Position numbers and translations under genes: made by a program. From positions 62,001-126,000 of the IMG/VR virus record IMGVR_UViG_3300006923_000006: a stretch of 64,000 nucleotides of DNA. One strand, 5' to 3'. Position 1 is the stretch's first letter; every line of letters begins with the position of its first letter. Source of the stretch: a virus. The notes beneath the pieces were generated by a model. It was not told where the DNA came from, did not search any database, and saw nothing but the letters and a program-made list of their open reading frames with translations. Shown here piece by piece: positions 1,969 to 33,986 of this stretch.

Positions 1969-2652
1969 ATGAAAGCTAAATTTTACCAAGTTGGTGGTTG
2001 TGTTCGGGACGAAATCCTTAACATTCCTTCTAAAGATGTTGACTACTCTGTTGAGTGTATGTCTTTTAACCATATGCGAGAATCTATTTTAGGACGTAAT
2101 GGTGAAATCTTTTTGGAAACTCCAGAATACTTTACTATTCGTGCTAAAGTTCCTGGTTTGGGTGCATGTGACTTTGTTATGTGTCGAAAAGACGGAGACT
2201 ACTCGGACGGTAGACGACCAGATAAAGTAATTCATGGTACTCTTCTCGATGACTTAAAACGAAGAGACTTTACGATGAATGCAATTGCTAAATGTGAGCA
2301 GGGTAATTTGATTGACCCTTTTAATGGTAAAAACGACATTGAACGTGGTGAAATTTGCCCTGTTGGGAATGCAAAAGACAGGTTTTGTGAAGACTCGCTA
2401 CGTATGATTCGTGCTATTCGATTTAGCATTACCAAAAACATGAATATGAACCCAGAAATTGTGCAGTGTCTGTTTAATTCTGAGTTGATTGCAAAATTAA
2501 AAAATGTTTCTGGTGAAAGAATTCGCGAAGAACTCCGAAAGTGTTTTAAGTTTAACACGATGAAAACGTTAGAAATGTTGCGGGATTTTCCAGAACTTTC
2601 TAATGCTATTTTTGAATGTGGTCTGTGGTTAGAGCCTACATTTAAAAGTTAG
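1969..2652 (+). CDS. cca: CCA-adding tRNA nucleotidyltransferase
   Basis: A 227-residue member of the polymerase-beta-like tRNA nucleotidyltransferase / poly(A) polymerase family. It shows VGG(8-10)...R13, catalytic D23-V-D25, the 'RRDFTMNAIA' motif (98-107) with 'DPFNG' after it, and the head-domain signature ED-S-LRMIRAIRF (141-152). These enzymes add or repair the 3'-CCA of tRNAs. It is much shorter than cellular enzymes (about 400 aa), lacking most of the C-terminal body and tail. None of the nearby tRNA genes encodes CCA, which fits a role in finishing phage tRNAs or repairing damaged host tRNAs. It starts one base after the preceding stop. Confidence 0.85.
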   Translation: MKAKFYQVGGCVRDEILNIPSKDVDYSVECMSFNHMRESILGRNGEIFLETPEYFTIRAKVPGLGACDFVMCRKDGDYSDGRRPDKVIHGTLLDDLKRRDFTMNAIAKCEQGNLIDPFNGKNDIERGEICPVGNAKDRFCEDSLRMIRAIRFSITKNMNMNPEIVQCLFNSELIAKLKNVSGERIREELRKCFKFNTMKTLEMLRDFPELSNAIFECGLWLEPTFKS

Positions 2653-3132: not shown

Positions 3133-3222
3133 ATGGTAAAAACAGAAATAAAAAAATGCGACGTTCTTTGTGCTAACTGTCATTTTAAACATCATTACAA
3201 CGAAAAAGAGAAGGAAGACTAA
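3133..3222 (+). CDS. Tiny HNH-like zinc-knuckle protein or remnant (29 aa)
   Basis: A 29-codon frame begins 4 nt after the tRNA-Gly and contains 'CDVLCANCHFKHHY', the CxxCH...H signature seen near the end of many HNH nucleases. On its own it is far too short for a nuclease, so it may be a leftover tail of a homing endonuclease or a miniature zinc protein. It lacks a ribosome-binding site, and its 3' end overlaps the irregular tRNA-Cys. Confidence 0.35.
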   Translation: MVKTEIKKCDVLCANCHFKHHYNEKEKED

Positions 3223-3286
3223 ATCTTCAGGGCGGAGAGAGAAATTGCAAATTTCTTGTCAGACGGTTCGACTCCGTTCCTTCTTT
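3208..3286 (+). tRNA. Probable tRNA-Cys (anticodon GCA) with irregular 5' half
   Basis: The 3' half is convincing: anticodon stem AGAAA/TTTCT around TTGCAAA (anticodon GCA at 3247-3249), T arm GACGG-TTCGACT-CCGTT, acceptor strand CCTTCTT and U73, the normal Cys discriminator. The matching 5' acceptor strand GAGAAGG is at 3208-3214, but then 25 nt instead of about 20 separate it from the anticodon stem, and the D arm (TCTT/GAGA at best) sits off register. The 5' boundary is therefore uncertain. Confidence 0.5.
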
Positions 3287-3411: not shown

Positions 3412-3942
3412 ATGGGAATGGTGAATGTTCGTACATTAGTCGCTGGTGATACTTTTGTACATAACGAAAAAGAATGGACAGTAAAACCGTCTGGTAGAGC
3501 TACTACAGAAGATGGCGATATGCTTATTGTTAGGCAAGAAAGTTTTGACGTATTTGTTAAGGACGATGTTATTAGCAAAGAAGACCCCTACGCAAGCGTA
3601 GAAAAAGACGAAAAGGTTGTAGAATATACGTTTCCTGATGACAACCATTATGTCGAATCTGTTACTTTACAAGAAGGCAAAGTGTGGGCTAATCAAAAAG
3701 ACGCAGATAAAGTTCCAGAGTTTGATGAAGAAGCTGGACAAAAAGCATTAGAAGCTGTTGAAAATGGTGATTTTGTTACTGGTGAAGAACTTGAGCAAGA
3801 AGTTCAAAAAGCAGTAGAAGAAGGTTTTGCTCTAGTAGAAACTAGTGATGATTTAGACGTATCAAAAGACGATAATACCGATTCTGTAGAAGATGTAACA
3901 GAAGGAGATAGTAGTGACGAAAGCGACGAAGACGAAAATTAA
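3412..3942 (+). CDS. Hypothetical acidic protein
   Basis: A 176-residue protein whose ATG is preceded by AAAGGAG at a good distance. The first 55 residues look like a small folded domain; the rest is very acidic, ending in a run of Asp, Glu and Ser. No family is recognised. The GroES-like gene starts inside its 3' end, so the two are probably translated together. A role linked to protein folding or assembly would be guesswork. Confidence 0.55.
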   Translation: MGMVNVRTLVAGDTFVHNEKEWTVKPSGRATTEDGDMLIVRQESFDVFVKDDVISKEDPYASVEKDEKVVEYTFPDDNHYVESVTLQEGKVWANQKDADKVPEFDEEAGQKALEAVENGDFVTGEELEQEVQKAVEEGFALVETSDDLDVSKDDNTDSVEDVTEGDSSDESDEDEN

Positions 3943-4216
3943 TCCAATGTCTGATTATGTAGCTGTTAAAATTGATACAGCAGAAACACATACTCCTGGT
4001 GGATTGGCCTTGCCTGCTAGTTCTCAAGACAAACCTCAAGTTGGAACAGTAGTTGCTATTGGTCCTGGTGCGTTACACGATGGAAAACGCGGGAATATGC
4101 AAGTTTGCGTAAAAGACAGAGTGTATGTTAATAAATACTCTGGTAATGAAGTAGAAGTTAATAATGAGACATTGCTTATTATCAGACAAAACGATATTTT
4201 GTTAAGCTTGTCTTAA
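3914..4216 (+). CDS. GroES-like co-chaperonin
   Basis: A 100-residue protein with the GroES/Cpn10 pattern: 'INPMSDYVAVKI' matches the family's 'IRPLHDRVxVK' start, a Gly-rich mobile-loop region ('THTPGGLALP') follows, then 'GTVVAIGPG', 'VKDRVYVNKYSG' and a C-terminal 'LIIRQNDIL'. Family members cap the host GroEL chamber; phage versions such as T4 gp31 help fold capsid proteins. The GTG start at 3914 is chosen because AAGGAG lies 6 nt upstream and because starting at the later ATG (3948) would remove the first beta strand. It overlaps the preceding gene by 29 nt. No GroEL gene is present here. Confidence 0.82.
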   Translation: MTKATKTKINPMSDYVAVKIDTAETHTPGGLALPASSQDKPQVGTVVAIGPGALHDGKRGNMQVCVKDRVYVNKYSGNEVEVNNETLLIIRQNDILLSLS

Positions 4217-4223
4217 CTCGGCT

Positions 4224-4292
4224 GCTGGTGCGTCGTGGCGGCGACTTGTTCTTGTAAAACGAGTTTTTAGGATTCGATTTTCTACACCAGCT
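4224..4292 (+). tRNA. tRNA-Thr (anticodon TGT)
   Basis: Acceptor GCTGGTG/CACCAGC is perfect. The D stem is TCGT/GCGA with a very small GGCG loop; the anticodon stem TTGTT/AACGA encloses CTTGTAA (anticodon TGT at 4253-4255); the T arm is TAGGA-TTCGATT-TTCTA. No CCA is encoded. It starts 7 nt after the GroES-like gene and is followed by a terminator. Confidence 0.82.
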
Positions 4293-4296
4293 TTTC

Positions 4297-4327
4297 CTAA
4301 AAAATTGGTATTTTATCAATTTTTTAG
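4297..4327 (+). terminator. Palindromic hairpin terminator after tRNA-Thr
   Basis: CTAAAAAATTG and CAATTTTTTAG form an 11-bp perfect stem around a 9-nt AT loop. It ends exactly where the -35 box of the next promoter begins, so it separates the upstream operon from the noncoding RNA/Ro60 locus. Confidence 0.65.
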
Positions 4328-4356
4328 TTGTCAAACCGGCAAAAACCGTGTATACT
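4328..4356 (+). promoter_or_regulatory. Strong sigma70-type promoter of the ncRNA/Ro60 locus
   Basis: TTGTCA (4328-4333), a 17-nt spacer and TATACT (4351-4356). The spacer carries ACCGGCAAAAACCG, closely matching the spacer of the promoter at 49913. The transcription start is expected near 4362. Confidence 0.8.
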
Positions 4357-4364
4357 TTATTAGA

Positions 4365-4467
4365 GCAGTGAGGCAACGGGTTACTTCTCGAATTAGAAAC
4401 CAACACCCATGCCAATGTACTCTCATTTTATAGAAAAAATTAGGCAGTGAACGAAACGGGTTACTTC
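4365..4467 (+). repeat. Two direct repeats inside the candidate ncRNA
   Basis: GCAGTGA followed by a 3-4 nt variable piece and AACGGGTTACTTC occurs at 4365-4387 and again at 4444-4467, 79 nt apart. The constant parts are identical over 20 positions. I saw no third copy elsewhere in the window. Confidence 0.85.
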
Positions 4468-4524
4468 AAAATTTTACCTTTTTAAGACCAAACCCTTTCA
4501 TTAATTCTCCTATTTTTATAGTAT

Positions 4525-4570
4525 GAGGGTTTACAACCAGATATTTCTGGTCTGTAGCCCTCTTTTTTTA
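4525..4570 (+). terminator. Intrinsic terminator ending the candidate ncRNA
   Basis: GAGGGTT pairs with its complement ending CCCTC, enclosing a second 6-bp stem ACCAGA/TCTGGT with a TATT loop; seven T residues follow (4563-4569). The Ro60 ribosome-binding site begins 11 nt later. Confidence 0.85.
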
Positions 4571-4591
4571 TCTCTCGTAAGGAGTAGTGAA

Positions 4592-6175
4592 ATGCCAGTT
4601 AATCAAACACGACCAAAAAACAAAGTCAACAACCTAAATCCTCATACTAACCATATGAATGGTTTAAGTTTTGATATCTCAAATCCCCTACATAACCTAA
4701 GTTGTGCAGCTTCTAGCTGTTTCTTCGGGGAACCACAATATTATTTCCCAACTAAAGATTCTCGTAAGAAATCTACCAAGATTCAAGTGCAAATGCACAC
4801 TCGTGGTCTGATAGAAGAATATTTAGACGCAATCACTCCATCTGAGTGGTATTACGACAATACTCCAGCTAAATTGCTTGAAAAAGCTATTGACAAAGCG
4901 TTAGACTGGAACCCAGAAGCTACCCTAACGGAAGCTGTGCGTTTGCGTAATAAGGAAAATATCAGAACCACACCACAAGTTATCTTGGTGCGTGCTGCTA
5001 ATCACGTTAAGCTTAAAGGTACTGGATTGGTACGTAAATACGGAACAAATATTGTTAAAAGAGCAGACGAATTGTCTGTTTGTCTAGCATATCAGCTTCA
5101 GGCATACGGAAAACCAATTCCAAACTCTTTGAAAAAAGTACTACGTGATGGACTTGATAGGTTTACAGATTGCCAATTAGCTAAGTATCGTATGGAAAAT
5201 CGTACTGTAAAAACAGTAGACGTAATGAACATGGTACACCCAAGTCGTACAGACAAAATCGACAAACTAGCTAAAGGTATGCTAAAAACCACAGGTAATA
5301 CCTGGGAATCTATCCGTAGTAATGGTGGTAGCTGGGAAGATGCTATCGCTGTAATGGGACATATGGCTTTGTTAAGAAACTTGCGTAATTTTGGCAAGAA
5401 CGAAGTAAATCCAGACCTATATTTGGACAAGTTGGTAAATACCACCGTTGGTGGAAAACAACTACCATTCAGATATTTTTCTGCGTATAACGCTTTGAAA
5501 GAAGCTGATTTTAACAACCCAAGAGTATTGGACGCTGTAGAAAACTGCTTAAACATTAGCATTTCTAACATTCCATCAATCAAGGGAAAAACTATGTCAT
5601 TGTGTGATAATAGCGGGTCTGCACACGGAGCTATGACTTCTAGTGCTGGTACTATGACTATGGCTACCATTGGTAACCTAACTGGTGTTATTACCGGAAT
5701 TATGGCAGATGAAGGTTATGTTGGTACTTTTGGTGATAGACTAGAAGTAACACCTATTCGTAAGAACTCTAGTGTGTTTGACCAACTAAAAACCGTTAAT
5801 AAAACTGGACGCAGCGTTGGTGCTGCTACAGAAAATGGTGTGTGGTTATTTTGGGACAAAGCTATTAAAACCAAAGAACACTGGGACAATGTATTTATCT
5901 ACTCTGATATGCAAGCTGGTCACGGTGGATTGTATGGTTGTAACGCTAATGAATACTCAAATTATCAATGGGGTGGACGACATATCCACGTTCCTAAGTT
6001 AATTTCTGAATACAGAAACAAAGTTAACAAAAACGTTAACGTATTTTTGGTTCAAACTGCGGGTTACCAAGACACTATCGTTCCCGAATTTTACGATAGA
6101 ACTTACATCCTTGGTGGATGGGGTGATGGTATTTTACGTTTTGCGGCTACTATGATTGCGGCTAATAACCGATAG
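4592..6175 (+). CDS. Ro60/TROVE-domain protein with vWA domain
   Basis: A 527-residue protein in two parts. Residues about 1-325 form an alpha-helical TROVE (HEAT-like ring) domain with the conserved 'YFPTKDSRKKS' style opening; residues about 330-527 form a von Willebrand A domain with metal site D339-N-S341-G-S343 and a later 'VFIYSDMQAG' strand. Ro60 proteins are RNA-binding rings that hold Y RNAs and handle misfolded or structured RNA, in bacteria with PNPase or rRNA-processing RNases. ATG 4592 is chosen because AAGGAG lies 7 nt upstream; an in-frame ATG at 4523 lies before the terminator hairpin. It is preceded by the candidate ncRNA and followed by a small gene 10 nt away. Phage Ro60 homologues are known but uncommon. 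Confidence 0.88.
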   Translation: MPVNQTRPKNKVNNLNPHTNHMNGLSFDISNPLHNLSCAASSCFFGEPQYYFPTKDSRKKSTKIQVQMHTRGLIEEYLDAITPSEWYYDNTPAKLLEKAIDKALDWNPEATLTEAVRLRNKENIRTTPQVILVRAANHVKLKGTGLVRKYGTNIVKRADELSVCLAYQLQAYGKPIPNSLKKVLRDGLDRFTDCQLAKYRMENRTVKTVDVMNMVHPSRTDKIDKLAKGMLKTTGNTWESIRSNGGSWEDAIAVMGHMALLRNLRNFGKNEVNPDLYLDKLVNTTVGGKQLPFRYFSAYNALKEADFNNPRVLDAVENCLNISISNIPSIKGKTMSLCDNSGSAHGAMTSSAGTMTMATIGNLTGVITGIMADEGYVGTFGDRLEVTPIRKNSSVFDQLKTVNKTGRSVGAATENGVWLFWDKAIKTKEHWDNVFIYSDMQAGHGGLYGCNANEYSNYQWGGRHIHVPKLISEYRNKVNKNVNVFLVQTAGYQDTIVPEFYDRTYILGGWGDGILRFAATMIAANNR

Positions 6176-9409: not shown

Positions 9410-12400
9410 ATGCACACTTATGAAGAGGCGTATGAGACAAGTAAAGAATATTTTGGTGGTAATGAGTTAGCAGCTAAGGTTTTTGTAGATAAATATTCGT
9501 TAAAAAATGAGATAGGTGAAATTCTTGAAAAAACACCTACAAGTATGCATAAAAGATTGGCTAAAGAATTTGCTCGAATAGAAAAAAAGAAATTCAAAAC
9601 ACCATTAACCAAAGAAGAAATATTTGACTTGTTTGATAATTTTAAATATATTGTTCCTCAAGGTAGTCCAATGAGTGGGATTGGCAATAACTATAACTAT
9701 CAATCATTAGGTAATTGTTTTACTTTAGGCAATCATCCTGTAGATTCATATGGCGGTATTTTATATGCTGACCAAATGTTAGTACAGTTAAGTAAAAGGC
9801 GATGCGGTGTTGGTGCTCATATAAACAATATTAGACCAAAAGGTTTGCCAACAAAAAATGCAGCTATTACTACAGATGGTATTTCTGTATTTATGGAGCG
9901 ATTCTCTAACAGTATTCGCGAAGTCGCACAATCAGGCAGAAGAGGAGCACTTCTTTTAGGATTGTCTGCATACCATCCAGAGATAGAAACTTTTATCAAT
10001 ATCAAAAAAGATAAGACAAAAGTTACAGGTGCTAATCTATCTGTGCTATTACCTAATAATTTTATACAAGCGGTGGAACAAGACGAAGAATACGAACAAA
10101 AATGGCCAATTGATTCTGAGACTCCGTTAGTTTCTCAAATGGTTAACGCTAAAAAAATATGGAATCAAATCATTAATGCTGCTTGGGAATCTGCCGAACC
10201 AGGACTATTGTTTATTGACAACATACAAAAATATAGCACTTCACACTGTTATGGTAAGGTAGATGAAAGGTTTTTAGACCTAATCCCAAATCCGTGTTTT
10301 CCAGCAAGCGAATATTTACTAACAAATAAAGGATATGTATCTTTTGGACAATTGTTTAAACAAGGTAATAATAATAAGATATTAGCAGACGCTCGTATAT
10401 CTTATAATAATGTTGGAGAAGAACGTGTTGAAAATTGGAAAATAAACTCCCAAAAACACGGAACAATTCAAAGAAATGCTAGTCATGTATTTTTAACACA
10501 AAAAAAAGCTGACACAATAGAAATAGAAACCAAAAAAGGATTTAAACTGTCGTGTACGCCAGACCATCATATTGCAACAACTACAGGTATGATTGAAGCA
10601 AGTCAATTAATTAAAAATGATGATATACTAATATCGATTCCTAATCAAAATACAAAATCAATTAAAAACAGATTACCAAAAACAGAAAAAGAAATATTGT
10701 CATTTCTAATAGGTTTGATTTCTGGAGACGGATGTATTGATAATAGTAAAAAAAATATACATCTTGATTTTTGGGAAGATGATAGATATCGTATGACAGA
10801 CATAGTTGTAAAGCTTATTAAAAAACTTCACAATAAATTAGGAGACAGATATGGATTGTCTAACAGAAAATTAAAAATATCTAGAATTTATGATGTACAA
10901 AAAGAAAGAAAAATAAGAATTTCATCTTCTTGGTTGTTTAATGTACTTTCAGAATATGGTTTTAATAAACAAACAAAACATATGGTTCCTGATTTTATAT
11001 TAAATAATTGTGTAGGTAATATAGGCAAATATTATTTGTCTGGTATGATGTATACAGATGGAACTATTGGAGGAAGTGTAAGTTCTGGATATTCGGTAAG
11101 ATTAAATCAAAGTAATAAAAAAATGCTACATAAAATACAAATGATTTTTCATGCTAATGGTATTTTAATGGGTTTATACAAAAGAAGAGACGAACAAAAC
11201 CGTATGATGCCGGACGGCAAAGGCGGATATAAATCATATAAAACAAAAACAAATTATGAATTAATTAGTATATGTGGTAGTATAGTTAAATATATGTCAG
11301 AAATAGGGTTTTTTGGAGACAAAAACAAAGAGTCTAAATTTAATAAAAATCATAATTATAGAATCAAATTAAATTACACAGATAAAATTAAAAAAATAAC
11401 ATTTAAAAATCAAGAACCAGTATTTTGCATTAAAGAAGATATTGGAAGGAATATTATTGTTAATGGTATTTCTGCAAGAAGATGCGGCGAAGTACCAATG
11501 GGATTTGATGCATGTAGGCTAATGTTATTAAATCTGTTTTCTTATGTAGATAAACCTTTTACTAAATCCGCTAAGTTTGATTACAAAAAATTTGATGAAC
11601 ATTGTATTACAGCACAAAGACTAATGGATGACATGGTAGATTTAGAATTAGAAAAAATGGATAAGATAATCAAAAAGATTAAATCTGACCCAGAACCTGA
11701 TAATATTAAACAATTAGAACTTGAAATGTGGGAGTCATATAAAGAAACTGCCGAACTAGGACGTAGAACTGGACTTGGTATTACTGGACTTGGCGATTGT
11801 TTAGCTGCTTTAGGAATTCAATACGGTTCTAAAAAATCTATTAGAAAAACAGAAGAAATATACAAGAGAATGGCTATATCTTCTATGAAATCGTCATGTC
11901 TACTAGCTAAAGAACTTGGTGCTTTTCCTTTGTTTAATCCCACCGTTGAACAAGATAACATTTTCATGAATCGTATTTTTGATGCGTCTGAAGAAGTTAA
12001 AATTTTACACCAACAGTATGGCAGACGTAATATTTCCTTGACAACCACCGCTCCTGCCGGTAGTGTTAGTATTATGACCCAAACGACTTCTGGTATTGAA
12101 CCTGCTTTTATGTTAGAATATACCCGAAGAAGAAAAATAAATAACGATTCTGAAAAATGTGATTTCGTGGATGCTTCTGGCGATAAGTGGGAACATAACA
12201 AAGTAGTCCATCATCACTTGCAGACATGGCGGGATTTAAGTCAAAAAGACAATATTGAGGATTCTCCGTATCATAAGGCTACTTCAAACGACATTGACTG
12301 GAAAGCTAGTGTAGAATTACAGTCTGTTGCTCAAAAGTGGATTACTCACTCTATTAGTAAAACATGTAATATTCCTAGCGATTCCACAAAAGAACTAGTT

Positions 12401-13006
12401 GCGGAAATTTACTTGGCTGCTGCTAAAAGTGGATGTAAAGGCTTTACTGTATATCGCGATGGTTGTAGAGACGGTGTTTTAGTTGCTGACACAGAAGTAA
12501 AGTTACCACCCAATAGGCCAAAAGAACTAGATTGTGATGTTTACCACACTACAGTTCGCGGACAAGAATATTTTGTGTTAGTTGGATTGTACAAAAACAA
12601 ACCATACGAAGTATTCGCTGGTAAGAATGGTATTATTCACAAAAAAGTTAAGACTGGCAAAATTACTAGGAAACGTAAAGATTTTTACAAAGCGGTGTTT
12701 GATGACGAAAATGAACTATCTCCAATTACGGCATGTATGGAAGAAATGGAAGAATGTATTTCCAGACTTACGTCTAGTCTTTTACGTAGTGGTTCAGATA
12801 TGAACTTTATTGTAACACAACTAGAAAAGGTTGGTGAAAGACAAACAGAAATGCATACTTTTGCTAAGTGTCTTGCTCGCGTACTCAAAAAGTATATTCC
12901 AGACGGGACAGAAACTGGAGATAAATGCCCAGAATGTGGTGATAAACTTATTAGGGAAAGTGGTTGCCAATCGTGTAAATCATGCCCTTATGCTAAATGT
13001 GGTTAA
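9410..13006 (+). CDS. nrdJ: Class II (adenosylcobalamin-type) ribonucleotide reductase with intein
   Basis: A 1198-residue precursor. Without the intein it would be about 802 residues, normal for NrdJ. Recognised parts are 'PQGSPMSGIGN' and 'SLGNC103F' (disulfide-forming Cys), the finger-loop 'NP|CGEVPMG' with the radical cysteine, and the NrdJ-type 'SGCKGFTVYRDGCRDGVLV' followed by a C-terminal cysteine-rich tail ('CPECGDKL...CQSCKSCPYAKCG') that recycles the active-site disulfide. It reduces ribonucleotides to deoxyribonucleotides and needs host vitamin B12. An intein of 396 residues (296-691) separates NP from CGE. The start has GAGG 8 nt upstream. A structured leader with a terminator precedes it, suggesting regulation. 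The next gene follows after 11 nt. Confidence 0.92.
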   Translation: MHTYEEAYETSKEYFGGNELAAKVFVDKYSLKNEIGEILEKTPTSMHKRLAKEFARIEKKKFKTPLTKEEIFDLFDNFKYIVPQGSPMSGIGNNYNYQSLGNCFTLGNHPVDSYGGILYADQMLVQLSKRRCGVGAHINNIRPKGLPTKNAAITTDGISVFMERFSNSIREVAQSGRRGALLLGLSAYHPEIETFINIKKDKTKVTGANLSVLLPNNFIQAVEQDEEYEQKWPIDSETPLVSQMVNAKKIWNQIINAAWESAEPGLLFIDNIQKYSTSHCYGKVDERFLDLIPNPCFPASEYLLTNKGYVSFGQLFKQGNNNKILADARISYNNVGEERVENWKINSQKHGTIQRNASHVFLTQKKADTIEIETKKGFKLSCTPDHHIATTTGMIEASQLIKNDDILISIPNQNTKSIKNRLPKTEKEILSFLIGLISGDGCIDNSKKNIHLDFWEDDRYRMTDIVVKLIKKLHNKLGDRYGLSNRKLKISRIYDVQKERKIRISSSWLFNVLSEYGFNKQTKHMVPDFILNNCVGNIGKYYLSGMMYTDGTIGGSVSSGYSVRLNQSNKKMLHKIQMIFHANGILMGLYKRRDEQNRMMPDGKGGYKSYKTKTNYELISICGSIVKYMSEIGFFGDKNKESKFNKNHNYRIKLNYTDKIKKITFKNQEPVFCIKEDIGRNIIVNGISARRCGEVPMGFDACRLMLLNLFSYVDKPFTKSAKFDYKKFDEHCITAQRLMDDMVDLELEKMDKIIKKIKSDPEPDNIKQLELEMWESYKETAELGRRTGLGITGLGDCLAALGIQYGSKKSIRKTEEIYKRMAISSMKSSCLLAKELGAFPLFNPTVEQDNIFMNRIFDASEEVKILHQQYGRRNISLTTTAPAGSVSIMTQTTSGIEPAFMLEYTRRRKINNDSEKCDFVDASGDKWEHNKVVHHHLQTWRDLSQKDNIEDSPYHKATSNDIDWKASVELQSVAQKWITHSISKTCNIPSDSTKELVAEIYLAAAKSGCKGFTVYRDGCRDGVLVADTEVKLPPNRPKELDCDVYHTTVRGQEYFVLVGLYKNKPYEVFAGKNGIIHKKVKTGKITRKRKDFYKAVFDDENELSPITACMEEMEECISRLTSSLLRSGSDMNFIVTQLEKVGERQTEMHTFAKCLARVLKKYIPDGTETGDKCPECGDKLIRESGCQSCKSCPYAKCG
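10295..11482 (+). mobile_element. Intein with LAGLIDADG homing endonuclease, inserted at the RNR radical cysteine
   Basis: The 396-residue insert begins with Cys ('CFPASEYLLTNKG'), carries the block-B signature 'TPDHHIA', two LAGLIDADG motifs ('LIGLISGDGCI' near residue 432 and 'SGMMYTDGTI' near 544 of the precursor) and a C-terminal 'NIIVNGISA' block. The insertion splits NP from CGE, so the +1 residue is the catalytic cysteine. The last two residues before it are Arg-Arg (AGA AGA) where inteins normally end in His-Asn. Codon use in the insert is even richer in A/T than in the flanks. Splicing competence is therefore uncertain. Confidence 0.9.
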
Positions 13007-26191: not shown

Positions 26192-28087
26192 ATGCCAAAA
26201 TGGACCCCATTACACCTACATAGTTATTATTCGTTGCTTGATGGTCTACAGAGTCCAACGCAGATAGCTAGTAAATGTGAAGAGTATGGATATACATCGT
26301 GTGCTATTACTGACCACGGAGTATTATCTGGGAGTGTTCAGTTTACACAAGCACTTAAAAAGAAAAACATAAAACCAATATTGGGTTGCGAATTCTACCT
26401 TAGTAGTCAAGACCCAACGATTCAATCTCAAGAAAATAGAAAGCTATCTCACCTATGCCTTTTGGCTAAAAACAAAAAAGGTTGGTTACAGCTTATTGCC
26501 GCGTCATCCCGAAGTAACGAAGATGACGTTTTTTATTATAAACCGCGATTAAGTCTTGATATGTTGGCACCCTACTGTGGTGACTTAATATCGTTTTCTG
26601 GTCATCCTGGCAGTGATATGTGTAACGTATTGTTTGATGGAAATCCGTATGCGTGTAAAACCGCAGATGAAGTAAGAAAAATACTACATCCAGACTGGAG
26701 AAAAAGAGCCGCAAGCTTAGCGAATAAATACCAAGACATATTTGGTAAAGGTAATTTTTTCCTTGAAGTACAATTAATTGACCAACACCAATTGCCAGTA
26801 CAAATTGTCATAGCAGACTGTTTGAGACAGGTCGGTAAGGACACCGGAATTTTATGTGTGGCTACTGCTGATTCTCATTACACTAACAAAACAGATACTT
26901 TTGACCATCGTGTGATTTTGTGTTCTGGTTTAAAAACAACATTACCAAAAGTCAATTCTAAGTTAGCAGCCGGAAATGACGTTGGATTAGGAGGATTCTT
27001 TAAAACAGACCAGTATCATATTCCTAGTCCTGACGAAATTGAAGCTATTAATACACAGGAAGAAATAGACAACACAGGCGTAATTGCTGGTATGTGCGAA
27101 GATTATGACATCCTTAGTAGACCAAGACTTCCTAAGTTTGAATGGACAGAAGGTATGTCAGAGTCTGGTTATGTGCGTCATTTGTGCAGAAAAGGTTGGA
27201 CAAACAGAGTCTGTTCGGAGTGGGACCAAAATATCTATTCGGATAGAATCAAAAAAGAACTTGGCGTGTTTGACAAAGCCGACTTAAATGGGTATTTTTT
27301 AATTGTCCAAGACTACGTCAACGAAGCAAAAAATCGCGGCATTCTGGTCGGCCCTGGTCGTGGTAGTGGTGCTGGCTCACTAGCCGCTTATTTGTTAAAC
27401 ATTACAAACGTAGACCCTATCCCAGAAGGTTTGTTATTTGAAAGATTTTACAACGACGGTAGAAATACTGCCGAAAGAGTTTCATTGCCTGACTTTGATA
27501 TTGATTTTCCTATTAAAGAAAGAGAGGAAATGATTGAATATGTCAAAGACAAATATGGTCATGATAGAGTTTGTCAAATGGTTACGTTTGGAAGAATGCA
27601 AGGTAGAGGAGCAATCAAAGAAGTTTTAAGAGTACACGAAGCTTGTGGATATGATATCATGAATGATATTACCAGAAATATTCCACAAGAGCATATAATT
27701 GATGACCAAATGAAAGCGTCTGGCGAAACATCAATTTTAAACTGGACACTTGAAAACGAGCCAGAAGCAATAGCTGACTTTTGCAGAAAAGAAGACGACG
27801 GTACTTTGACTGGAGATTATGCTAGATACTTTGAACAGGCTATTAGATTAGAAGGAACTTATAAGACTCAAGGTAAACATGCTGCTGGTATCATTATTGC
27901 TGCCGAACCTCTTGCTGGCATTTGTCCAATGGTTAGAGATAAAACAGGTGGTATGATTGCCGGTATGGATATGAACGACTTAGAAGAAATGGGACACGTT
28001 AAGTTTGACTTTCTCGGAATCTCCTCCTTAAGTAAGCTGATGGCAGTAAATAACCTGTTAATGTATGGGAGAATTAACGTTGATTAA
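26192..28087 (+). CDS. dnaE: DNA polymerase III alpha subunit, N-terminal half (PHP and palm)
   Basis: 631 residues covering the start of a bacterial-type C-family polymerase: PHP domain ('HLHSYYSLLDG', 'ITDHGVLSG'), then the palm with the catalytic acids in 'PDFDIDF' (residues 433-439) and 'KFDFLG' (third Asp at 606). It stops normally shortly after the third acid, where E. coli DnaE continues. The second half is a separate gene 4.1 kb downstream (32178). Both pieces have good starts, no frameshift and no intein motifs, so the enzyme is likely assembled from two chains. Confidence 0.88.
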   Translation: MPKWTPLHLHSYYSLLDGLQSPTQIASKCEEYGYTSCAITDHGVLSGSVQFTQALKKKNIKPILGCEFYLSSQDPTIQSQENRKLSHLCLLAKNKKGWLQLIAASSRSNEDDVFYYKPRLSLDMLAPYCGDLISFSGHPGSDMCNVLFDGNPYACKTADEVRKILHPDWRKRAASLANKYQDIFGKGNFFLEVQLIDQHQLPVQIVIADCLRQVGKDTGILCVATADSHYTNKTDTFDHRVILCSGLKTTLPKVNSKLAAGNDVGLGGFFKTDQYHIPSPDEIEAINTQEEIDNTGVIAGMCEDYDILSRPRLPKFEWTEGMSESGYVRHLCRKGWTNRVCSEWDQNIYSDRIKKELGVFDKADLNGYFLIVQDYVNEAKNRGILVGPGRGSGAGSLAAYLLNITNVDPIPEGLLFERFYNDGRNTAERVSLPDFDIDFPIKEREEMIEYVKDKYGHDRVCQMVTFGRMQGRGAIKEVLRVHEACGYDIMNDITRNIPQEHIIDDQMKASGETSILNWTLENEPEAIADFCRKEDDGTLTGDYARYFEQAIRLEGTYKTQGKHAAGIIIAAEPLAGICPMVRDKTGGMIAGMDMNDLEEMGHVKFDFLGISSLSKLMAVNNLLMYGRINVD

Positions 28088-28301
28088 GATAAAAATTAGC
28101 GGGCCAGGAGGCACATTTGGTTCTATTGCTTTTCAGATTATGAAAGTATTAGAAAACAACGGAGCGATAGTGACTATTGATGAACATTACGAAAATACAG
28201 ATTTACCATTTAATAACGAAAACACGGAAAACGCTACAGTAAGACAATTTAGAAACAAAGAAGTACATATCCATTTACAGCAATTGCCATGGGGAGGATA
28301 A
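28080..28301 (+). CDS. Small protein with degenerate P-loop-like start
   Basis: A 73-residue protein starting at TTG 28080, which has GGGAG 8 nt upstream and overlaps the DnaE stop; an in-frame ATG at 28065 lies further inside dnaE. The start 'IKISGPGGTFGSIAFQIMKVL' resembles P-loop NTPases ('ISGPxGxGKST') but lacks the GKT, so nucleotide binding is doubtful. Function unknown. Confidence 0.45.
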   Translation: MIKIKISGPGGTFGSIAFQIMKVLENNGAIVTIDEHYENTDLPFNNENTENATVRQFRNKEVHIHLQQLPWGG

Positions 28302-28302
28302 A

Positions 28303-28545
28303 GTGAACGAACTAAACGTATTAAAAGAACTATTAGAATCTGGTCATTCTATCTCATATAAGAGATTGACAGTATGTAAGATTACCAGACCTTTTGGAAA
28401 ACACAAAAATGTTTTTCAAGTACACTGCGAAGATTCTAGTTTTAAACATAGTCAACTATATTTTGATGTTGAGTCTGCAATTATAACTTTTTGTGAACAC
28501 AGACAGAAATTGGTCAAAAAATATAAAAATGCATATCTTAAATGA
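28303..28545 (+). CDS. Hypothetical protein (80 aa)
   Basis: GTG start with GGGGAGG directly upstream. Small, mixed alpha/beta, with several Lys, His and Cys. No family is recognised. It overlaps the glycosylase gene by 17 nt. Confidence 0.5.
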   Translation: MNELNVLKELLESGHSISYKRLTVCKITRPFGKHKNVFQVHCEDSSFKHSQLYFDVESAIITFCEHRQKLVKKYKNAYLK

Positions 28546-29098
28546 GAACATACACAAGTGTAATATGTGTCCTTTGCGTGCTTTGCTACCAGACACATGT
28601 CAACCACTTGTCGGAGTTGGGCAACCTTCTCCTTTAATGATTGTCGGTGACGCTCCTTCTGAAAACGAAATATTGACTCAGACTACTTTTTATGATTCTA
28701 GTTTGTATCTAGAAAAAATGCTAGAAAGCACAGGATTAGATATTGGTCAGTGTTATATAACAAATTTGATGAAATGCAAACCAAAAAGAGCAGCTAAAAA
28801 AGATGAAATAGACTCATGTAAGAAATGGTTATGGAAAGAAATCAAAAAAACCAAACCCAGAGTAATTGTAACGATGGGAAAAATTTCATCTATATCTTTG
28901 TTAAAAGGACAGATAAAACAAAACTTCACTATGAAAGACCTAATAAGTAGAGAGTTTTCTGTTTCTTATTGTGATGCAAAAATTTTACCGTGTTATGGAC
29001 CATTGTATTTATTAAACCAAGGAAAACAACTCAACGACCAAGCACGTATGGTATTGAAATACGCTGCGTTTTTATCAGGAATTAGGACACAAATATGA
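28529..29098 (+). CDS. Uracil-DNA glycosylase family 4-like protein
   Basis: A 189-residue protein with the family-4 (iron-sulfur) UDG layout: C11-x-x-C14 opening, 'PLMIVGDAPSENE' in the place of GEAPG, 'CYITNLMKCKP' and a later Cys ('DSCKKW') completing a likely 4Fe-4S cluster, then 'PRVIVTMGKIS' and a 'PCYGP' where the family has PTYHP. The active-site loops are altered, so base specificity may differ or activity may be lost. It sits among polymerase genes, consistent with DNA repair or handling of uracil. The start ATG 28529 lacks a strong ribosome-binding site. Confidence 0.72.
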   Translation: MHILNENIHKCNMCPLRALLPDTCQPLVGVGQPSPLMIVGDAPSENEILTQTTFYDSSLYLEKMLESTGLDIGQCYITNLMKCKPKRAAKKDEIDSCKKWLWKEIKKTKPRVIVTMGKISSISLLKGQIKQNFTMKDLISREFSVSYCDAKILPCYGPLYLLNQGKQLNDQARMVLKYAAFLSGIRTQI

Positions 29099-29598
29099 GT
29101 TTTACAGAGGATATTCGAGTAGGTACGGCAGGCGAAAGATTTATCAAAAAATTATTCAAGATGCATAAAGTCGATGTAGAATTTGGCAAAGACAAAAAAC
29201 ACCGCGAATCTTATGACTTGATTGGTAAGATTGGAAGAAGTAAATTAACCATAGAAGTTAAATTTGACAAGATGGCAGAAAAGACTGGAAATCTTGCAAT
29301 TGAATACCACAACCCCAAATCTGGAAAACCAAGTGGAATTAGCGTAACTAAAGCTAAACTGTGGGCACACGTTGTTCTTGACTGTGGACATATGACAGCT
29401 TGGTTGGCGTCTACTAAAGAATTGAAAGCATACATTGAAATGTACGAACCTAGAAAAATGGTCTTCTTTGGTGGCGATAAGAACGCTAATTTGTATTTGT
29501 ATGAAGATATACATATCCTTAAAACCGTTTTTAATCGTATTGATACAATATTTGATGAAAGTAAATTTCAAAAACTAGTCAAAAAACTCATAAAATAA
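29095..29598 (+). CDS. PD-(D/E)XK nuclease, Holliday-junction-resolvase-like
   Basis: A 167-residue protein with 'GTAGERFIKKLF' helix (conserved Glu), 'SYDLIGKIG' (Asp) and 'LTIEVKFDKMAEKTGNLAIEY' (E-x-K), the order seen in archaeal-type Hjc resolvases and related phage nucleases. Likely resolves branched DNA during recombination or packaging. It starts on the preceding stop (ATGA). Confidence 0.65.
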   Translation: MSFTEDIRVGTAGERFIKKLFKMHKVDVEFGKDKKHRESYDLIGKIGRSKLTIEVKFDKMAEKTGNLAIEYHNPKSGKPSGISVTKAKLWAHVVLDCGHMTAWLASTKELKAYIEMYEPRKMVFFGGDKNANLYLYEDIHILKTVFNRIDTIFDESKFQKLVKKLIK

Positions 29599-29610
29599 CA
29601 AGGAAAAACA

Positions 29611-30414
29611 ATGAACTTCAACGACTTCATCTTCTACGATTTTGAAACAGGCAGCAAAAGTGCTCGCAAATGCCAACCTTTACAATTGGCTGCTGTGGTT
29701 ATTGATGCTAGAAAACTAACAATCAGACCAAACAGTGTATTTAATACTTTAATTAAACCACTCAGCGATAGCCAAGCAGAAGCTTGTGGTATAGACCCCG
29801 TAAGCGACGAAGCTTTAGAAGTCAATCATATTAAACGAGAAGACTTAAAAAGTGCTCCGTCTTGTAAACTAGCATGGTCTCAATTTGTAGAATATGTAAA
29901 CAAGTACAACAGACGTAAAAATAGATGGGCAGCACCAATCAAAGCTGGTTACAACAATTGTAATTATGACGACATTATTCTAGACAGATTGTGTTGTGGA
30001 CAATATTGTGGTAACATTACCATGACTAGAGATAGTTTTAAGACAGTCAAAAAAGGCCCGCATGACGAAGTTCATGTTAAAGACTATGTCCTAAAAGAAC
30101 CGTATGGTTTTGGTCCGTCTGACGACGTATATGGAGGAGAGGCACTGTTTCATCCTTTTAACAACATCGACGTTATGAAAGAAGTCTTTAGTTGGATTTA
30201 TGAAAACGACAAAAAGGTTACGTCAATTAGTATGGATACTATGAGAGAGTATCTTGGTATGCCAGCAGACAAGGCACACGACGCGGAGTACGATGTCTTA
30301 CAAGGTGCAGAAATGTTGGTTAGATTCTTAAAGCTTAAAAGAAACATCATGAAAAGCAGTATTGGTGTTAAGTTTAAAGGCACCTGTTCTGAGAGTAAGT
30401 TAGGAGTTTACTAA
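29611..30414 (+). CDS. DnaQ-like 3'-5' exonuclease (proofreading subunit type)
   Basis: A 267-residue DEDDh exonuclease: motif I 'FYDFETGS' (residues 8-15), motif II in 'AGYNNCNYDDIILDR', motif III 'HDAEYDVLQG'. In cellular replisomes this activity proofreads for polymerase III alpha; here it lies between the two halves of that polymerase, supporting the same role. The stop overlaps the glmS start (TAATG). Confidence 0.85.
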   Translation: MNFNDFIFYDFETGSKSARKCQPLQLAAVVIDARKLTIRPNSVFNTLIKPLSDSQAEACGIDPVSDEALEVNHIKREDLKSAPSCKLAWSQFVEYVNKYNRRKNRWAAPIKAGYNNCNYDDIILDRLCCGQYCGNITMTRDSFKTVKKGPHDEVHVKDYVLKEPYGFGPSDDVYGGEALFHPFNNIDVMKEVFSWIYENDKKVTSISMDTMREYLGMPADKAHDAEYDVLQGAEMLVRFLKLKRNIMKSSIGVKFKGTCSESKLGVY

Positions 30415-32075
30415 TGTGTGGCATATATGCTAGAGTTGGTACACATAAAATTAAAGAAAGTTGTCAAAGACTTAAAAAACTTTCCTATAGAGGATATGAC
30501 GCACATGGTTATCGCGTTGTGTGCAACGGTGGTCTTTATGCATATACTCATAAGAGACTGGGAGAAATAAAACCCACTGGTGGTGCTGATGCTCAATTAT
30601 TTTTAGGACACACTAGGTGGGCTACTAGTGGCACCAACCATGAGGAACTAGCACATCCACACAATTTTGACAACAACTATATAGTACATAACGGAATATT
30701 AAACTGTCCACCAGATAACCAAGCTGTAGAAACAGATTCTCAAATCATACCTGTTTTGATAAATAAATATATTACAGATGAAAAATCTATAGACGCTTTA
30801 GAATTGGCTTTAAAAGAACTATATAAGTACAATACAGAAATAGGAGCTATAGTCTACTACGATGAAACACATGGTCACACAAAAGAACTGATTGTTTATA
30901 CTGATTCTTTACCTCTGTTTACAAATTGTCGTGGGGTTGTGGCATCCGATACTTCTGCGTTTGAAGACGATGAAAACATATATGCCGTTCCAAAACACAT
31001 AGCTTTCACTCTTACTGAAGAAGGTCTAATTGATAATGGTCTTGTGGCTATAGGTCTAGAAAAAGCATCAAGGAAAAAATCTGATAAAACCAAGCATACG
31101 GAAAATTTCACACTAAACGAGATTGCAGAACAGGCGGATTTAATCAAAGAAATAGAACAACGCAATGTTAGTCCTTTGACAGATTTGATATACTCTGACC
31201 GTAGGATTATGACAATTGCTTGTGGTAGTAGTCATTATGCGGGAATGTTAGGCGGCTTATATTTAGGTAACACGGGCGTAAGGTGTAATCAGAGATACGC
31301 AAGCGAAATACAAGACGGTCTTTACTATTCTGACGAGTATACAACCCATATGCTGATTTCTCAGAGTGGTGAGACAAAAGACGTGATAGATTCCGCCAAA
31401 ATAATCAAAAAAGGCTTTGCGTTAATTAACAGGAGTAACAGTTCTTTATCTCATATTTTTCCTTCATATATGATGGGCGTAGGCGAAGAAATTGGCGTTG
31501 CTGCAACTAAGTCTTTTATGGCTACAGCTTTATTGATGTATAAATGCGGACATATTACATCTTTTAAAAATCTAGCGACCTGTGTCAGAGATTTGACAAG
31601 TCCACAAACTTCGGGTATTATTAAAGGGTACGCGAAGCAGTTTAAAAATTATCGCAATATGCTGATTCTGGGAACAGGACTGAATTACCCAATCGCTCTT
31701 GAAGCGGCGTTGAAAATTAAAGAAGTATCTTATATCCATGCAGAGGGTATGCCTTCGTCAGAAATTAAACATGGTCCATTAGCTCTTATAGATGATGATA
31801 CGTTGTCTGTATGTATAGTTGACAAGACAGACCCTAAAGTAGTGGAATCAATCAGAAATATAGAACAGATTAAAACCCGTGGTGGTGAAGTATTAGTCAT
31901 TGGCAACAATAATTATACAAGTAAAAATCAAATATTAACTATACCATGTGACAATAAAGACCTACAACCTTTGGTTAATTTGGTTGTACTACAATTGTTT
32001 GCATGTTATTTAGCTGAAGCCAAAGGATTAAATGTAGACAAACCAAGGAATTTAGCTAAGTCGGTGACTGTATGA
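30414..32075 (+). CDS. glmS: Glutamine-fructose-6-phosphate aminotransferase
   Basis: A 553-residue enzyme making glucosamine-6-phosphate from fructose-6-phosphate and glutamine. The N-terminal glutaminase starts with the catalytic Cys2 ('MCGIYARVG') and has 'GHTRWATSG' and 'HNGIL'; two SIS domains follow ('ACGSSHYAG', 'SQSGETKDVIDS') and the C-terminal tail 'DKPRNLAKSVTV' is the classic GlmS ending. Somewhat shorter than cellular GlmS (about 600). It sits inside the replication cluster between dnaQ-like and the second polymerase gene, and together with the GNA1-like gene points to N-acetylglucosamine production. Confidence 0.93.
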   Translation: MCGIYARVGTHKIKESCQRLKKLSYRGYDAHGYRVVCNGGLYAYTHKRLGEIKPTGGADAQLFLGHTRWATSGTNHEELAHPHNFDNNYIVHNGILNCPPDNQAVETDSQIIPVLINKYITDEKSIDALELALKELYKYNTEIGAIVYYDETHGHTKELIVYTDSLPLFTNCRGVVASDTSAFEDDENIYAVPKHIAFTLTEEGLIDNGLVAIGLEKASRKKSDKTKHTENFTLNEIAEQADLIKEIEQRNVSPLTDLIYSDRRIMTIACGSSHYAGMLGGLYLGNTGVRCNQRYASEIQDGLYYSDEYTTHMLISQSGETKDVIDSAKIIKKGFALINRSNSSLSHIFPSYMMGVGEEIGVAATKSFMATALLMYKCGHITSFKNLATCVRDLTSPQTSGIIKGYAKQFKNYRNMLILGTGLNYPIALEAALKIKEVSYIHAEGMPSSEIKHGPLALIDDDTLSVCIVDKTDPKVVESIRNIEQIKTRGGEVLVIGNNNYTSKNQILTIPCDNKDLQPLVNLVVLQLFACYLAEAKGLNVDKPRNLAKSVTV

Positions 32076-32185
32076 ATAAAGAAGAGATAACAAAATTGTT
32101 GGTATATACCTTGGACCATTGTCTTAATGGAGACAAGACTATTATCTTAGAAAAAAAAGATATGGACAAAATAATAAATGACTGA
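32072..32185 (+). CDS. Small hypothetical protein (37 aa)
   Basis: ATG overlaps the glmS stop (ATGA) and its own stop overlaps the next start, so it is tightly coupled on both sides. The pattern 'KLLVYTLDH...GDKTIILEKKDMDKI' resembles the 51-aa protein at 47585, suggesting a small paralogous pair. Function unknown. Confidence 0.5.
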   Translation: MNKEEITKLLVYTLDHCLNGDKTIILEKKDMDKIIND

Positions 32186-33986
32186 ATATTACGAAATGTC
32201 GTGTGGTTGTAAGTTTCCGATTCAAGATGTTAAAAAAAGAGACAATTGTGATTCATTACCACCAATACAAATAGACTACGAAAATATTAGATATGACTGT
32301 CCAGCTACTTGGGAACTCCTACAAAGCGGACAAACTAAAGGGGTCTTTCAATTAGAAACCAGACTTGGTCAAGGGTGGTCTAAAAAAATATCACCAGAAA
32401 ATCTAGGTCACCTATCTGCTTTGGGTGCTTTGCTGCGTCCTGGTTGTTTGAAGTCTAAAATTTCTGGCAAGTCTATGACAGAACTATATGCAGATAGAAA
32501 AGCCGGATTAGAAAAGACAGAATATATCCACGAGTCATTAAAGTCTATATTGTCTTCGACACATGGTGTATTAACTTTTCAGGAGCAGGCTATGGCTATT
32601 GCTCAGAAACTAGCAGGGTTTAATCTACAAGAAGCTGATGTTTTGCGTAAAGCTATTGGTAAGAAAAAAGCCGATATTATGACGAAAGTTAAAAAAACTT
32701 TCATGGACGGTTGTGCAAAAACTAAAGTAGTTCCTGTAGAAATTGCAGAACAGATTTTTGGCTGGATTCAAGAGTCACAAAAATATTCGTTCAATGCAAG
32801 CCATAGTTATTCGTATGGTATGATTGGCTACTGGACAGCTTATGCTAAAGCACATTTTCCACAACACTTTTTTACAGCATGGTTGTATTACGCTAAAGAA
32901 AAGATTGACCCGCACGCAGAGACCAAACAGTTAGTTGCTGATGCCAAAAATTTTGAAGTAGACATATGTCCTCCTTTGTTGGAGACAACAGAAAAAGGAG
33001 ACCCTGGTGATTTTACTCTATATGAGAATAAAGTATACTTTGGTATTAGAAATGTTAAAAGAGTAGGCGATTCGCATATCAAAAAACTCCTTTCTCACGT
33101 AGTGAGTAACGAAGAAGCATTAGACAAAGACATCAAAGATTTTAATTGGTATGAATTCCTGTGTTCTTTTGGTAGGCAAATCAACAAAAATACTATCCAA
33201 GGTATCATGTCTGTCGGAGGGTTAGACGGACTTAATAAATCTAGAACTAGTATGTTATTTGAATATCATCTGTATACTAAATTAACTTCAAGAGAAAAAG
33301 AACTACTTAGTATACTAGGCGGATTTAGCCCAGAAGAAATCCAGGTAAAGGTTGATGGCGAATTATACGGTATAAACCCCGCAAGTCCTGATGTAATCAA
33401 TCAAATGAATATATTGGGTGTTAAAGCTGCTGCTAGGAAAAAAATTGCTTATGTGGCGGATTTATATAATTCTGACGAAAGATGCGACAATTTGCGAGAC
33501 GGGTTGGTAATTTTATCTGAATGCGAGATAATATCTAAAAATAGACAAAATAAAATCGGTGAAATGATTATTTCTCTTGATGAACCTCCTCATTCCCTAG
33601 TTGATGATTCCAAATGGATAAATCGCACAGAGTCTGAACTTTTAGGTATTTCTATCACCTGTAGCAACCTAGATGTTGTTGACCAATCGTTTGCTGTTAC
33701 TGCTACTTGTAAAGAATTTGTGGATGGACGTGTTGGACTAATGAGTTTAGGTGTAGAAATTAATGAAGTCAAAGAACACGTAATTAAAAAGAAGGGAAAC
33801 ATGGAAGGAATGACCATGGCGTTTTTGACCGTACAAGACGATTCGGGTGTGGTTGATTCTATTATTATGTTTCCAGATGCTTACGAAAGTTTTAAGCATT
33901 TATTATATCCAGAAAATACTGTCTTATTAGTCGGAGAGCGTTCTGACCGGGACTCTTTAATAGTAAAAAAGGTACGACAAATTTAA
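32178..33986 (+). CDS. dnaE: DNA polymerase III alpha subunit, C-terminal half (fingers to OB domain)
   Basis: 602 residues continuing where the 26192 gene stops: 'TWELLQSGQTKGVFQLET' matches the DnaE segment 'SFDMLQRSETTAVFQLES', then 'LGALLRPGCLKS', 'ILSSTHGVLTFQEQ', 'LRKAIGKKK' and 'FNASHSYSYGMIGYWTAYAKAHFP' (fingers), helix-hairpin-helix-like region, and an OB-type C-terminus. It carries no catalytic acid; those are in the first half. The extra N-terminal 30 residues contain 'CGC' and may help joining. The start ATG overlaps the small upstream gene. Confidence 0.88.
   Translation: MTEYYEMSCGCKFPIQDVKKRDNCDSLPPIQIDYENIRYDCPATWELLQSGQTKGVFQLETRLGQGWSKKISPENLGHLSALGALLRPGCLKSKISGKSMTELYADRKAGLEKTEYIHESLKSILSSTHGVLTFQEQAMAIAQKLAGFNLQEADVLRKAIGKKKADIMTKVKKTFMDGCAKTKVVPVEIAEQIFGWIQESQKYSFNASHSYSYGMIGYWTAYAKAHFPQHFFTAWLYYAKEKIDPHAETKQLVADAKNFEVDICPPLLETTEKGDPGDFTLYENKVYFGIRNVKRVGDSHIKKLLSHVVSNEEALDKDIKDFNWYEFLCSFGRQINKNTIQGIMSVGGLDGLNKSRTSMLFEYHLYTKLTSREKELLSILGGFSPEEIQVKVDGELYGINPASPDVINQMNILGVKAAARKKIAYVADLYNSDERCDNLRDGLVILSECEIISKNRQNKIGEMIISLDEPPHSLVDDSKWINRTESELLGISITCSNLDVVDQSFAVTATCKEFVDGRVGLMSLGVEINEVKEHVIKKKGNMEGMTMAFLTVQDDSGVVDSIIMFPDAYESFKHLLYPENTVLLVGERSDRDSLIVKKVRQI

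What the first reader, a model, noticed from the sequence alone, without database searches (positions are those of the whole stretch)
4297..6175. Self-contained phage Ro60 locus with a candidate Y-like RNA
Seen: terminator, then a consensus-like promoter (TTGTCA-17-TATACT), about 205 nt with no gene, a strong terminator, then a ribosome-binding site and a TROVE/vWA protein with an intact metal site. Known: bacterial Ro60 orthologues work with Y RNAs, in Deinococcus encoded beside the protein gene. Inference: the phage carries a complete Ro60 ribonucleoprotein that could steer host or phage RNA decay or handle its own unusual tRNAs, many of which lie just upstream. I do not see the exact bacterial Y RNA consensus, so this could be a new Y RNA class.
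Basis: partly seen in the sequence, partly recalled or inferred. Interest (0 to 1): 0.87.

Follow-up and report, generated by a model that had tools for sequence, protein, structure and literature searches.

The report
Phage Ro60 with tandem Y RNAs
This phage carries its own Ro60 RNA-binding ring protein and, in a short transcript just upstream, two copies of the small "Y RNA" hairpin that Ro60 proteins bind in bacteria; this makes it a clear new example of a known kind of RNA-protein particle rather than a new class.

Summary
Window 4592-6175 encodes a TROVE/vWA (Ro60) protein with an intact metal site. The gene-free 205 nt before it holds two tandem copies, not one, of a Ro60-binding stem: Y1 at 4359-4429 and Y2 at 4438-4516. 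A covariance model built only from other phages and bacteria finds both at E = 2.5e-9 and 5.4e-9. It finds nothing else convincing in the 163,651-base record. The same module occurs in arrays of up to six beside Ro60 in most phage loci tested with it, and in Verrucomicrobia, myxobacteria, Actinomycetes and Deinococcus plasmids. Both stems covary. In Deinococcus it coincides with sub-threshold matches to Rfam's YrlA (Y RNA) family, so this is not a new Y RNA class. Relatives usually also carry a Y RNA with a tRNA-like domain; the window has none, and the record shows no PNPase or RtcB. Likely mechanism: one promoter makes a two-headed Y RNA that binds the phage Ro60, and terminator read-through yields Ro60 mRNA. 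Phage Ro60 and phage Y RNA candidates are already in the literature, so this is a new member of a known kind.

The parts
4224..4292 (+). tRNA-Thr (TGT), directly upstream neighbour
   Evidence: ARAGORN
4297..4327 (.). AT-rich inverted repeat, possible end of the upstream transcript
   Evidence: 14-nt arms, 93% complementary
4328..4356 (+). sigma-70-type promoter, predicted start about 4362-4363
   Evidence: 10 of 12 consensus matches; position coincides with the 5' end of Y1
4359..4429 (+). Y RNA module 1 (Y1): Ro60-binding stem GAG-C-AGUGA..GGGUUACUUC / AACACCC..UACUCUC with a short inner loop
   Evidence: held-out covariance model R1, 42.9 bits, E 2.5e-9; MFE fold agrees
4438..4516 (+). Y RNA module 2 (Y2): UAGG-C-AGUGA..GGGUUACUUC / AAACCC..AUUCUCCUA, short inner loop
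   Evidence: held-out covariance model R1, 41.6 bits, E 5.4e-9
4525..4569 (+). intrinsic terminator between the Y RNAs and the Ro60 gene
   Evidence: fold z -6.1; hairpin -22.0 kcal/mol with T7; the same position is used in L130 and the L198/L200 type
4579..4584 (+). Shine-Dalgarno AAGGAG of the Ro60 gene
   Evidence: sequence
4592..6175 (+). Ro60 (TROVE + vWA) protein, 527 aa
   Evidence: Pfam PF05731; PHROG 850; Foldseek hits to 9l5y/9kop, 1YVP, 2NVO
5606..5620 (+). metal site DNSGS (residues 339-343) of the vWA domain; T413 and D439 complete it
   Evidence: invariant in 31 homologues

Best explanation
The phage encodes a complete Ro60/Y RNA particle. One promoter produces a transcript of about 205 nt that carries two Y RNA modules and ends at a strong terminator. 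Phage Ro60, a ring-shaped HEAT/vWA protein, binds the bulged stem of each module on its outer face. Shown by computation: the two modules, their family-wide conservation and covariation, the intact Ro60, and the promoter-Y-Y-terminator-Ro60 order. Inferred: Ro60 is made by read-through of the terminator, so Y RNA is in excess and every Ro60 mRNA carries two Ro60-binding sites in its leader. Inferred: Y RNAs act as gates on the Ro60 ring and as stabilisers. Because both modules lack the tRNA-like domain, the particle is probably not tethered to PNPase in the way described for Deinococcus; it more likely binds structured or damaged host or phage RNA directly.
For: Held-out model R1 finds only these two sites in the record. 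93 same-strand against 1 opposite-strand motif hits in 111 Ro60 loci, and 1 in shuffled sequence. 68 of 68 further R1 matches lie on the Ro60 strand. Covariation: 83.8% of cells paired against 60.2% shuffled, score 0.657 against 0.225. With the 3' strand chosen by sequence alone, the outer stem pairs 3.88 of 5 against 3.0 permuted, 0 of 20,000. About 17 of 117 genome segments holding the motif also hold Ro60 on the same strand. R1 finds tandem modules beside Ro60 in two Deinococcus plasmids, one of each pair overlapping RF02553 YrlA. Ro60 fold: pLDDT 77.7, best PDB hits all Ro60.
Against: No transcript or binding data exist for this phage. A second contig with the region is nearly identical and adds no independent support. 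Promoter-like sites are not enriched over shuffles. The hairpins alone fold only modestly better than shuffles (z about -1.4). R1 finds nothing beside Ro60 of Thermus phage phiLo, so not every phage Ro60 locus has this module.
Confidence: 0.85

Rival explanations
1. The two modules are mainly a cis-acting leader: Ro60 binds its own mRNA leader and sets terminator read-through or translation, with little role as a free RNA.
For: In several relatives (L136, L138, L144, L149, L152) the last module sits 27-85 nt before Ro60 with no terminator. In the window one promoter would serve both.
Against: Arrays of up to six modules, modules downstream of Ro60 in other phages (L160, L166, L210) and tRNA-like domains in many of them fit trans-acting RNAs better. 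A strong terminator in the window makes a discrete RNA.
Confidence: 0.2
2. The locus works like Deinococcus RYPER: Y RNA tethers Ro60 to host PNPase for decay of structured RNA.
For: Same Ro60-binding module as in Deinococcus loci; RNase PH-type domains, which PNPase carries, are common in hosts (12 of 14 control genomes). The mechanism is described for D. radiodurans (PMC4726728, PMC8394870).
Against: Neither window module has the tRNA-like domain that binds PNPase; no phage PNPase in the record.
Confidence: 0.15
3. The repeats are an unrelated element, such as a tRNA intron, a ribozyme or a remnant of permuted tRNAs, that only happens to lie near Ro60.
For: In L003 and L008 the motif is fused to tRNA-like sequence.
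Against: Strand-specific linkage to Ro60 across many phages and several bacterial phyla; chance motif matches without Ro60 (L004, L009) score only 12 bits.
Confidence: 0.02

Closest known systems
Bacterial Y RNAs of Deinococcus (Rsr-associated) and YrlA, Rfam RF02553
   Same: Basal stem that binds Ro60, encoded beside Ro60, tandem copies; R1 finds such pairs in D. taeanensis and D. gobiensis plasmids, one of each pair overlapping a YrlA match of 40.8 and 49.6 bits.
   Different: The window modules have only short inner loops and no tRNA-like domain; RF02553 matches neither the window nor L008.
Phage Y RNA candidates (Chen et al. 2014, cited in PMC12282133 for mycobacteriophages)
   Same: Phage-encoded Ro60 with a nearby noncoding RNA.
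   Different: The original paper is not in the library, so its consensus could not be compared. The phages here are different, and this report supplies a shared covarying module.
Ro60 of Thermus phage phiLo (PDB 9l5y, 9kop)
   Same: Best structural and sequence matches of the window protein among solved structures.
   Different: 19-20% identical; no R1 module beside the phiLo gene.
Ro60 of Bacillus phage G and Desulfovibrio phage 7757
   Same: Closest annotated phage Ro60 proteins, 41% and 38% identical.
   Different: Phage G has only weak, variant modules upstream (23.6 bits); none was found for phage 7757.
Vertebrate Y RNA lower stem
   Same: Bulged-stem Ro60 site with a single bulged cytidine (PMC4726728).
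   Different: No sequence homology was tested; stem length and the second bulge differ.

Membership tests
Ro60/TROVE protein | TROVE domain above the curated cut-off | tested here: met
   PF05731 37.7 bits against 23
Ro60/TROVE protein | HEAT ring plus vWA domain fold | tested here: met
   AlphaFold model of moderate confidence; all 13 Foldseek hits at E <= 0.001 are Ro60 structures
Ro60/TROVE protein | vWA metal site DxSxS..T..D | tested here: met
   D339, S341, S343, T413, D439 invariant in 31 sequences
Bacterial/phage Y RNA | encoded beside a Ro60 gene | tested here: met
   75 nt between the end of Y2 and the Ro60 start
Bacterial/phage Y RNA | conserved, covarying Ro60-binding stem shared with known Y RNA loci | tested here: met
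   R1 E 2.5e-9 and 5.4e-9 in the window; 2e-10 to 5e-6 in Deinococcus; covariation
Bacterial/phage Y RNA | physical binding of Ro60 to the RNA | not testable with these tools
   needs pull-down or gel shift
YrlA (Rfam RF02553) | tRNA-like domain (D, T and acceptor-like arms) | tested here: not met
   inner loops too short, no T-arm pattern; no RF02553 match in the window
RYPER (Ro60/Y RNA/PNPase) | PNPase tethered through the Y RNA | not testable with these tools
   no PNPase in the phage record; the host is unknown
RNA repair operon (rsr-yrlBA-rtcBA) | linked RtcB/RtcA | tested here: not met
   no RtcB in the 163,651-base record, which may be incomplete; RtcA was not searched

The most novel reading that the evidence does not exclude
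A Ro60 particle with two tandem Y RNAs and no tRNA-like effector domain at all, in which the Y RNAs also form the leader of the Ro60 mRNA, so that free Ro60 controls its own expression at the intervening terminator while the particle works without PNPase tethering.
Probability: 0.2. Interest if true: 0.6.

Novelty: new member of a known kind. Interest (0 to 1): 0.45.

Why it matters
What phages gain from a Ro60 particle is unknown. A covariance model that reaches from Deinococcus to many phages lets Y RNAs be found beside many Ro60 genes where Rfam's YrlA model does not reach its threshold. It also suggests that phages often carry short Y RNAs without the tRNA-like domain, so PNPase tethering cannot be the whole story; this can be tested in a cultured phage.

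Tried and rejected
Group I-like intron, ribozyme or permuted tRNA gene: my first reading of the motif in L003 and L008 (note). Rejected once Ro60 was seen beside it in each case. Enterococcus sRNA_1300 (24.4 bits against a gathering score of 48.8): rejected as composition and a shared terminator shape. Listeria phage P100 as a transcript test: a 2025 paper suggests that very abundant transcripts of a P100-like phage are Y RNAs (PMC12282133), but P100 gp165 (taken as the counterpart of that paper's protein by size and position) matches DUF2828/DUF7788 rather than TROVE, and R1 finds nothing beside it, so it gives no support here. First unbiased pairing test: the outer stem was read one base out of register and looked weak; corrected. 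A sequence-only rule for the 3' strand often picked the next module; kept only as an unbiased test. Chen 2014, Sim and Wolin 2018 and Wang 2018 are not in the paper library, so the published consensus could not be compared. D. radiodurans itself could not be fetched; Deinococcus plasmids stood in.

Full report
The locus. The window is bases 62001-126000 of a 163,651-base virus record. A phage replication module lies downstream in it (DnaB-like helicase, DNA polymerase). The reading frame 4592-6175 is a Ro60 protein: Pfam TROVE 37.7 bits, PHROG 850 RNA-binding protein, 41% identical to Bacillus phage G gp540 and 54-58% to Sorangium and Polyangia Ro60. An AlphaFold model (mean pLDDT 77.7, weak in the first 90 residues) matches only Ro60 structures at E <= 0.001. 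The first is Thermus phage phiLo Ro60, then the Xenopus and human proteins and D. radiodurans Rsr. The five metal-site residues are invariant in 31 homologues.

The RNA. The 205 nt before the gene contain GCAGTGA-N4/5-ACGGGTTACTTC twice, 80 nt apart. A scan of phage contigs for this motif gave seven stretches. One is a near-identical copy of this locus, four (L003, L006, L007, L008) lie in phage tRNA clusters, and two (L004, L009) look like chance. Reading L003 and L008 showed a Ro60 gene beside the motif. About 17 hold a Ro60 gene, found with a profile grown from the window protein, and the motif is then on the same strand, typically within 1.4 kb upstream of it. Ro60 is rare (about 5% of bacterial genomes, PMC4726728), so chance would give almost none.

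Family. Searches with Ro60 alignments gave 109 phage loci. Over 111 loci the fuzzy motif occurs 93 times on the Ro60 strand, once on the other and once in shuffled sequence. Its 3' partner strand is AACACC-N-UUCUCC. I aligned 34 short modules without the window (A3). The 12 pairs give 83.8% paired cells against 60.2% shuffled, 110 two-sided changes against 40, and a covariation score of 0.657 against 0.225; sliding the partner by one to three columns lowers it to 0.13-0.33. Pairing had helped to choose the 3' strands, which favours this result. I therefore repeated the test with 3' strands chosen by sequence alone: the outer stem pairs 3.88 of 5 against 3.0 permuted (0 of 20,000) and the inner variable pairs 1.45 of 3 against 1.13 (110 of 20,000).

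Held-out test. The covariance model R1 from A3 finds the window sites at 4359-4429 (42.9 bits, E 2.5e-9) and 4438-4516 (41.6 bits, E 5.4e-9); the next match has E 1.1. In the whole record there are only these two. In 53 Ro60 loci where the simple motif had failed, all 68 matches at E <= 5 lie on the Ro60 strand, and 31 of the 53 loci have one at E <= 0.1. Two chance motif matches without Ro60 score 12 bits. Two Polyangium segments without Ro60 score about 52 bits, but their genomes each hold two Ro60 regions.

Same class as known Y RNAs. On D. taeanensis and D. gobiensis plasmids R1 finds two tandem modules just before the Ro60 gene (E 2e-10 to 5e-6). The tRNA-like one of each pair overlaps an Rfam YrlA match of 40.8 or 49.6 bits, below the gathering score of 69. 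So the window modules share their Ro60-binding stem with Deinococcus Y RNAs and are not a new class. RF02553 misses the window and L008.

What differs. Of 32 loci with at least two modules, 21 have a T-arm pattern in at least one and 11, the window among them, have none (a strict pattern, so approximate). The tRNA-like domain is what binds PNPase in RYPER (PMC8394870). The record has no PNPase or RtcB match, with the reservation that it may be incomplete. A terminator between the Y RNAs and Ro60 is seen in the window, L130, L198, L200, L232 and probably L208, but not in L136, L138, L144, L149 or L152, where the module sits in the Ro60 leader.

Mechanism. Established for the families (PMC4726728): Ro60 is a ring that binds Y RNA on its outer face and single-stranded RNA in its channel, and prokaryotic Y RNA regulates access to it; Ro60 in turn stabilises its Y RNA. 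From the anatomy here, by inference: transcription begins at the first base of Y1, runs through Y2 and mostly stops at 4563-4569; read-through yields Ro60. What the particle acts on in the infected cell is unknown.

Novelty. Phage Ro60 proteins (PMC7824862, PMC7765460; PDB 9l5y) and phage Y RNA candidates (Chen et al. 2014 as cited in PMC12282133) are already reported. From memory, that paper found likely Y RNAs near Ro60 in over 250 bacterial and phage species, at least one per species with a tRNA-like domain; I could not read it. This is a new member of a known kind. The points of interest are the missing tRNA-like domain and the wide-reaching model.

Noticed in passing
L003 minus strand, around 6100-5978, 5970-5845 and 4560-4430 (also L006, L007; L256 has the same pattern): Y modules in tRNA order: acceptor 5' strand, D arm, Y 3' strand, GNRA loop, Y 5' strand, T arm, acceptor 3' strand and an encoded CCA end. 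The Ro60-binding stem stands where the anticodon arm would be and the tail is free, whereas L008 and L130 show the circular permutation, as I remember it from YrlA. Folds give a closed acceptor stem with a free CCA in three cases. Worth its own study.
   Followed up: partly
window 4519-4533 and 4635-4649: The terminator's 5' arm is complementary over 15 nt (one mismatch) to codons near the start of Ro60; probably more than chance would give in 500 nt. Meaning unknown, conservation not tested.
   Followed up: no
window 1969-2652: CCA-adding/poly(A) polymerase head domain gene (PF01743) amid tRNA genes, some atypical (for example a possible tRNA-Cys at about 3213-3285 with an odd D arm).
   Followed up: no
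window 3914-4216: GroES-like co-chaperonin (PF00166, 89 bits) directly upstream.
   Followed up: no
window 9410-13006: 1198-aa ribonucleotide-reductase-like frame that seems to hold an intein (read from the translation).
   Followed up: no
window 26192-33986: DNA polymerase in two pieces (26192-28087 and 32178-33986, PHROG 405 positions 43-612 and 620-1067), separated by other genes including an aminotransferase-like one.
   Followed up: no
L035 4096 and 6443, L072 2600: Polyangium Y RNA pairs, duplicated in L035, with no Ro60 inside the 8-kb segment; each genome has two TROVE regions elsewhere.
   Followed up: partly
L253 31571-33091 (Listeria phage P100 gp165): The likely P100 counterpart of the protein proposed as a Ro60 relative in PMC12282133 matches DUF2828/DUF7788, not TROVE, and has no R1 module nearby.
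   Followed up: partly
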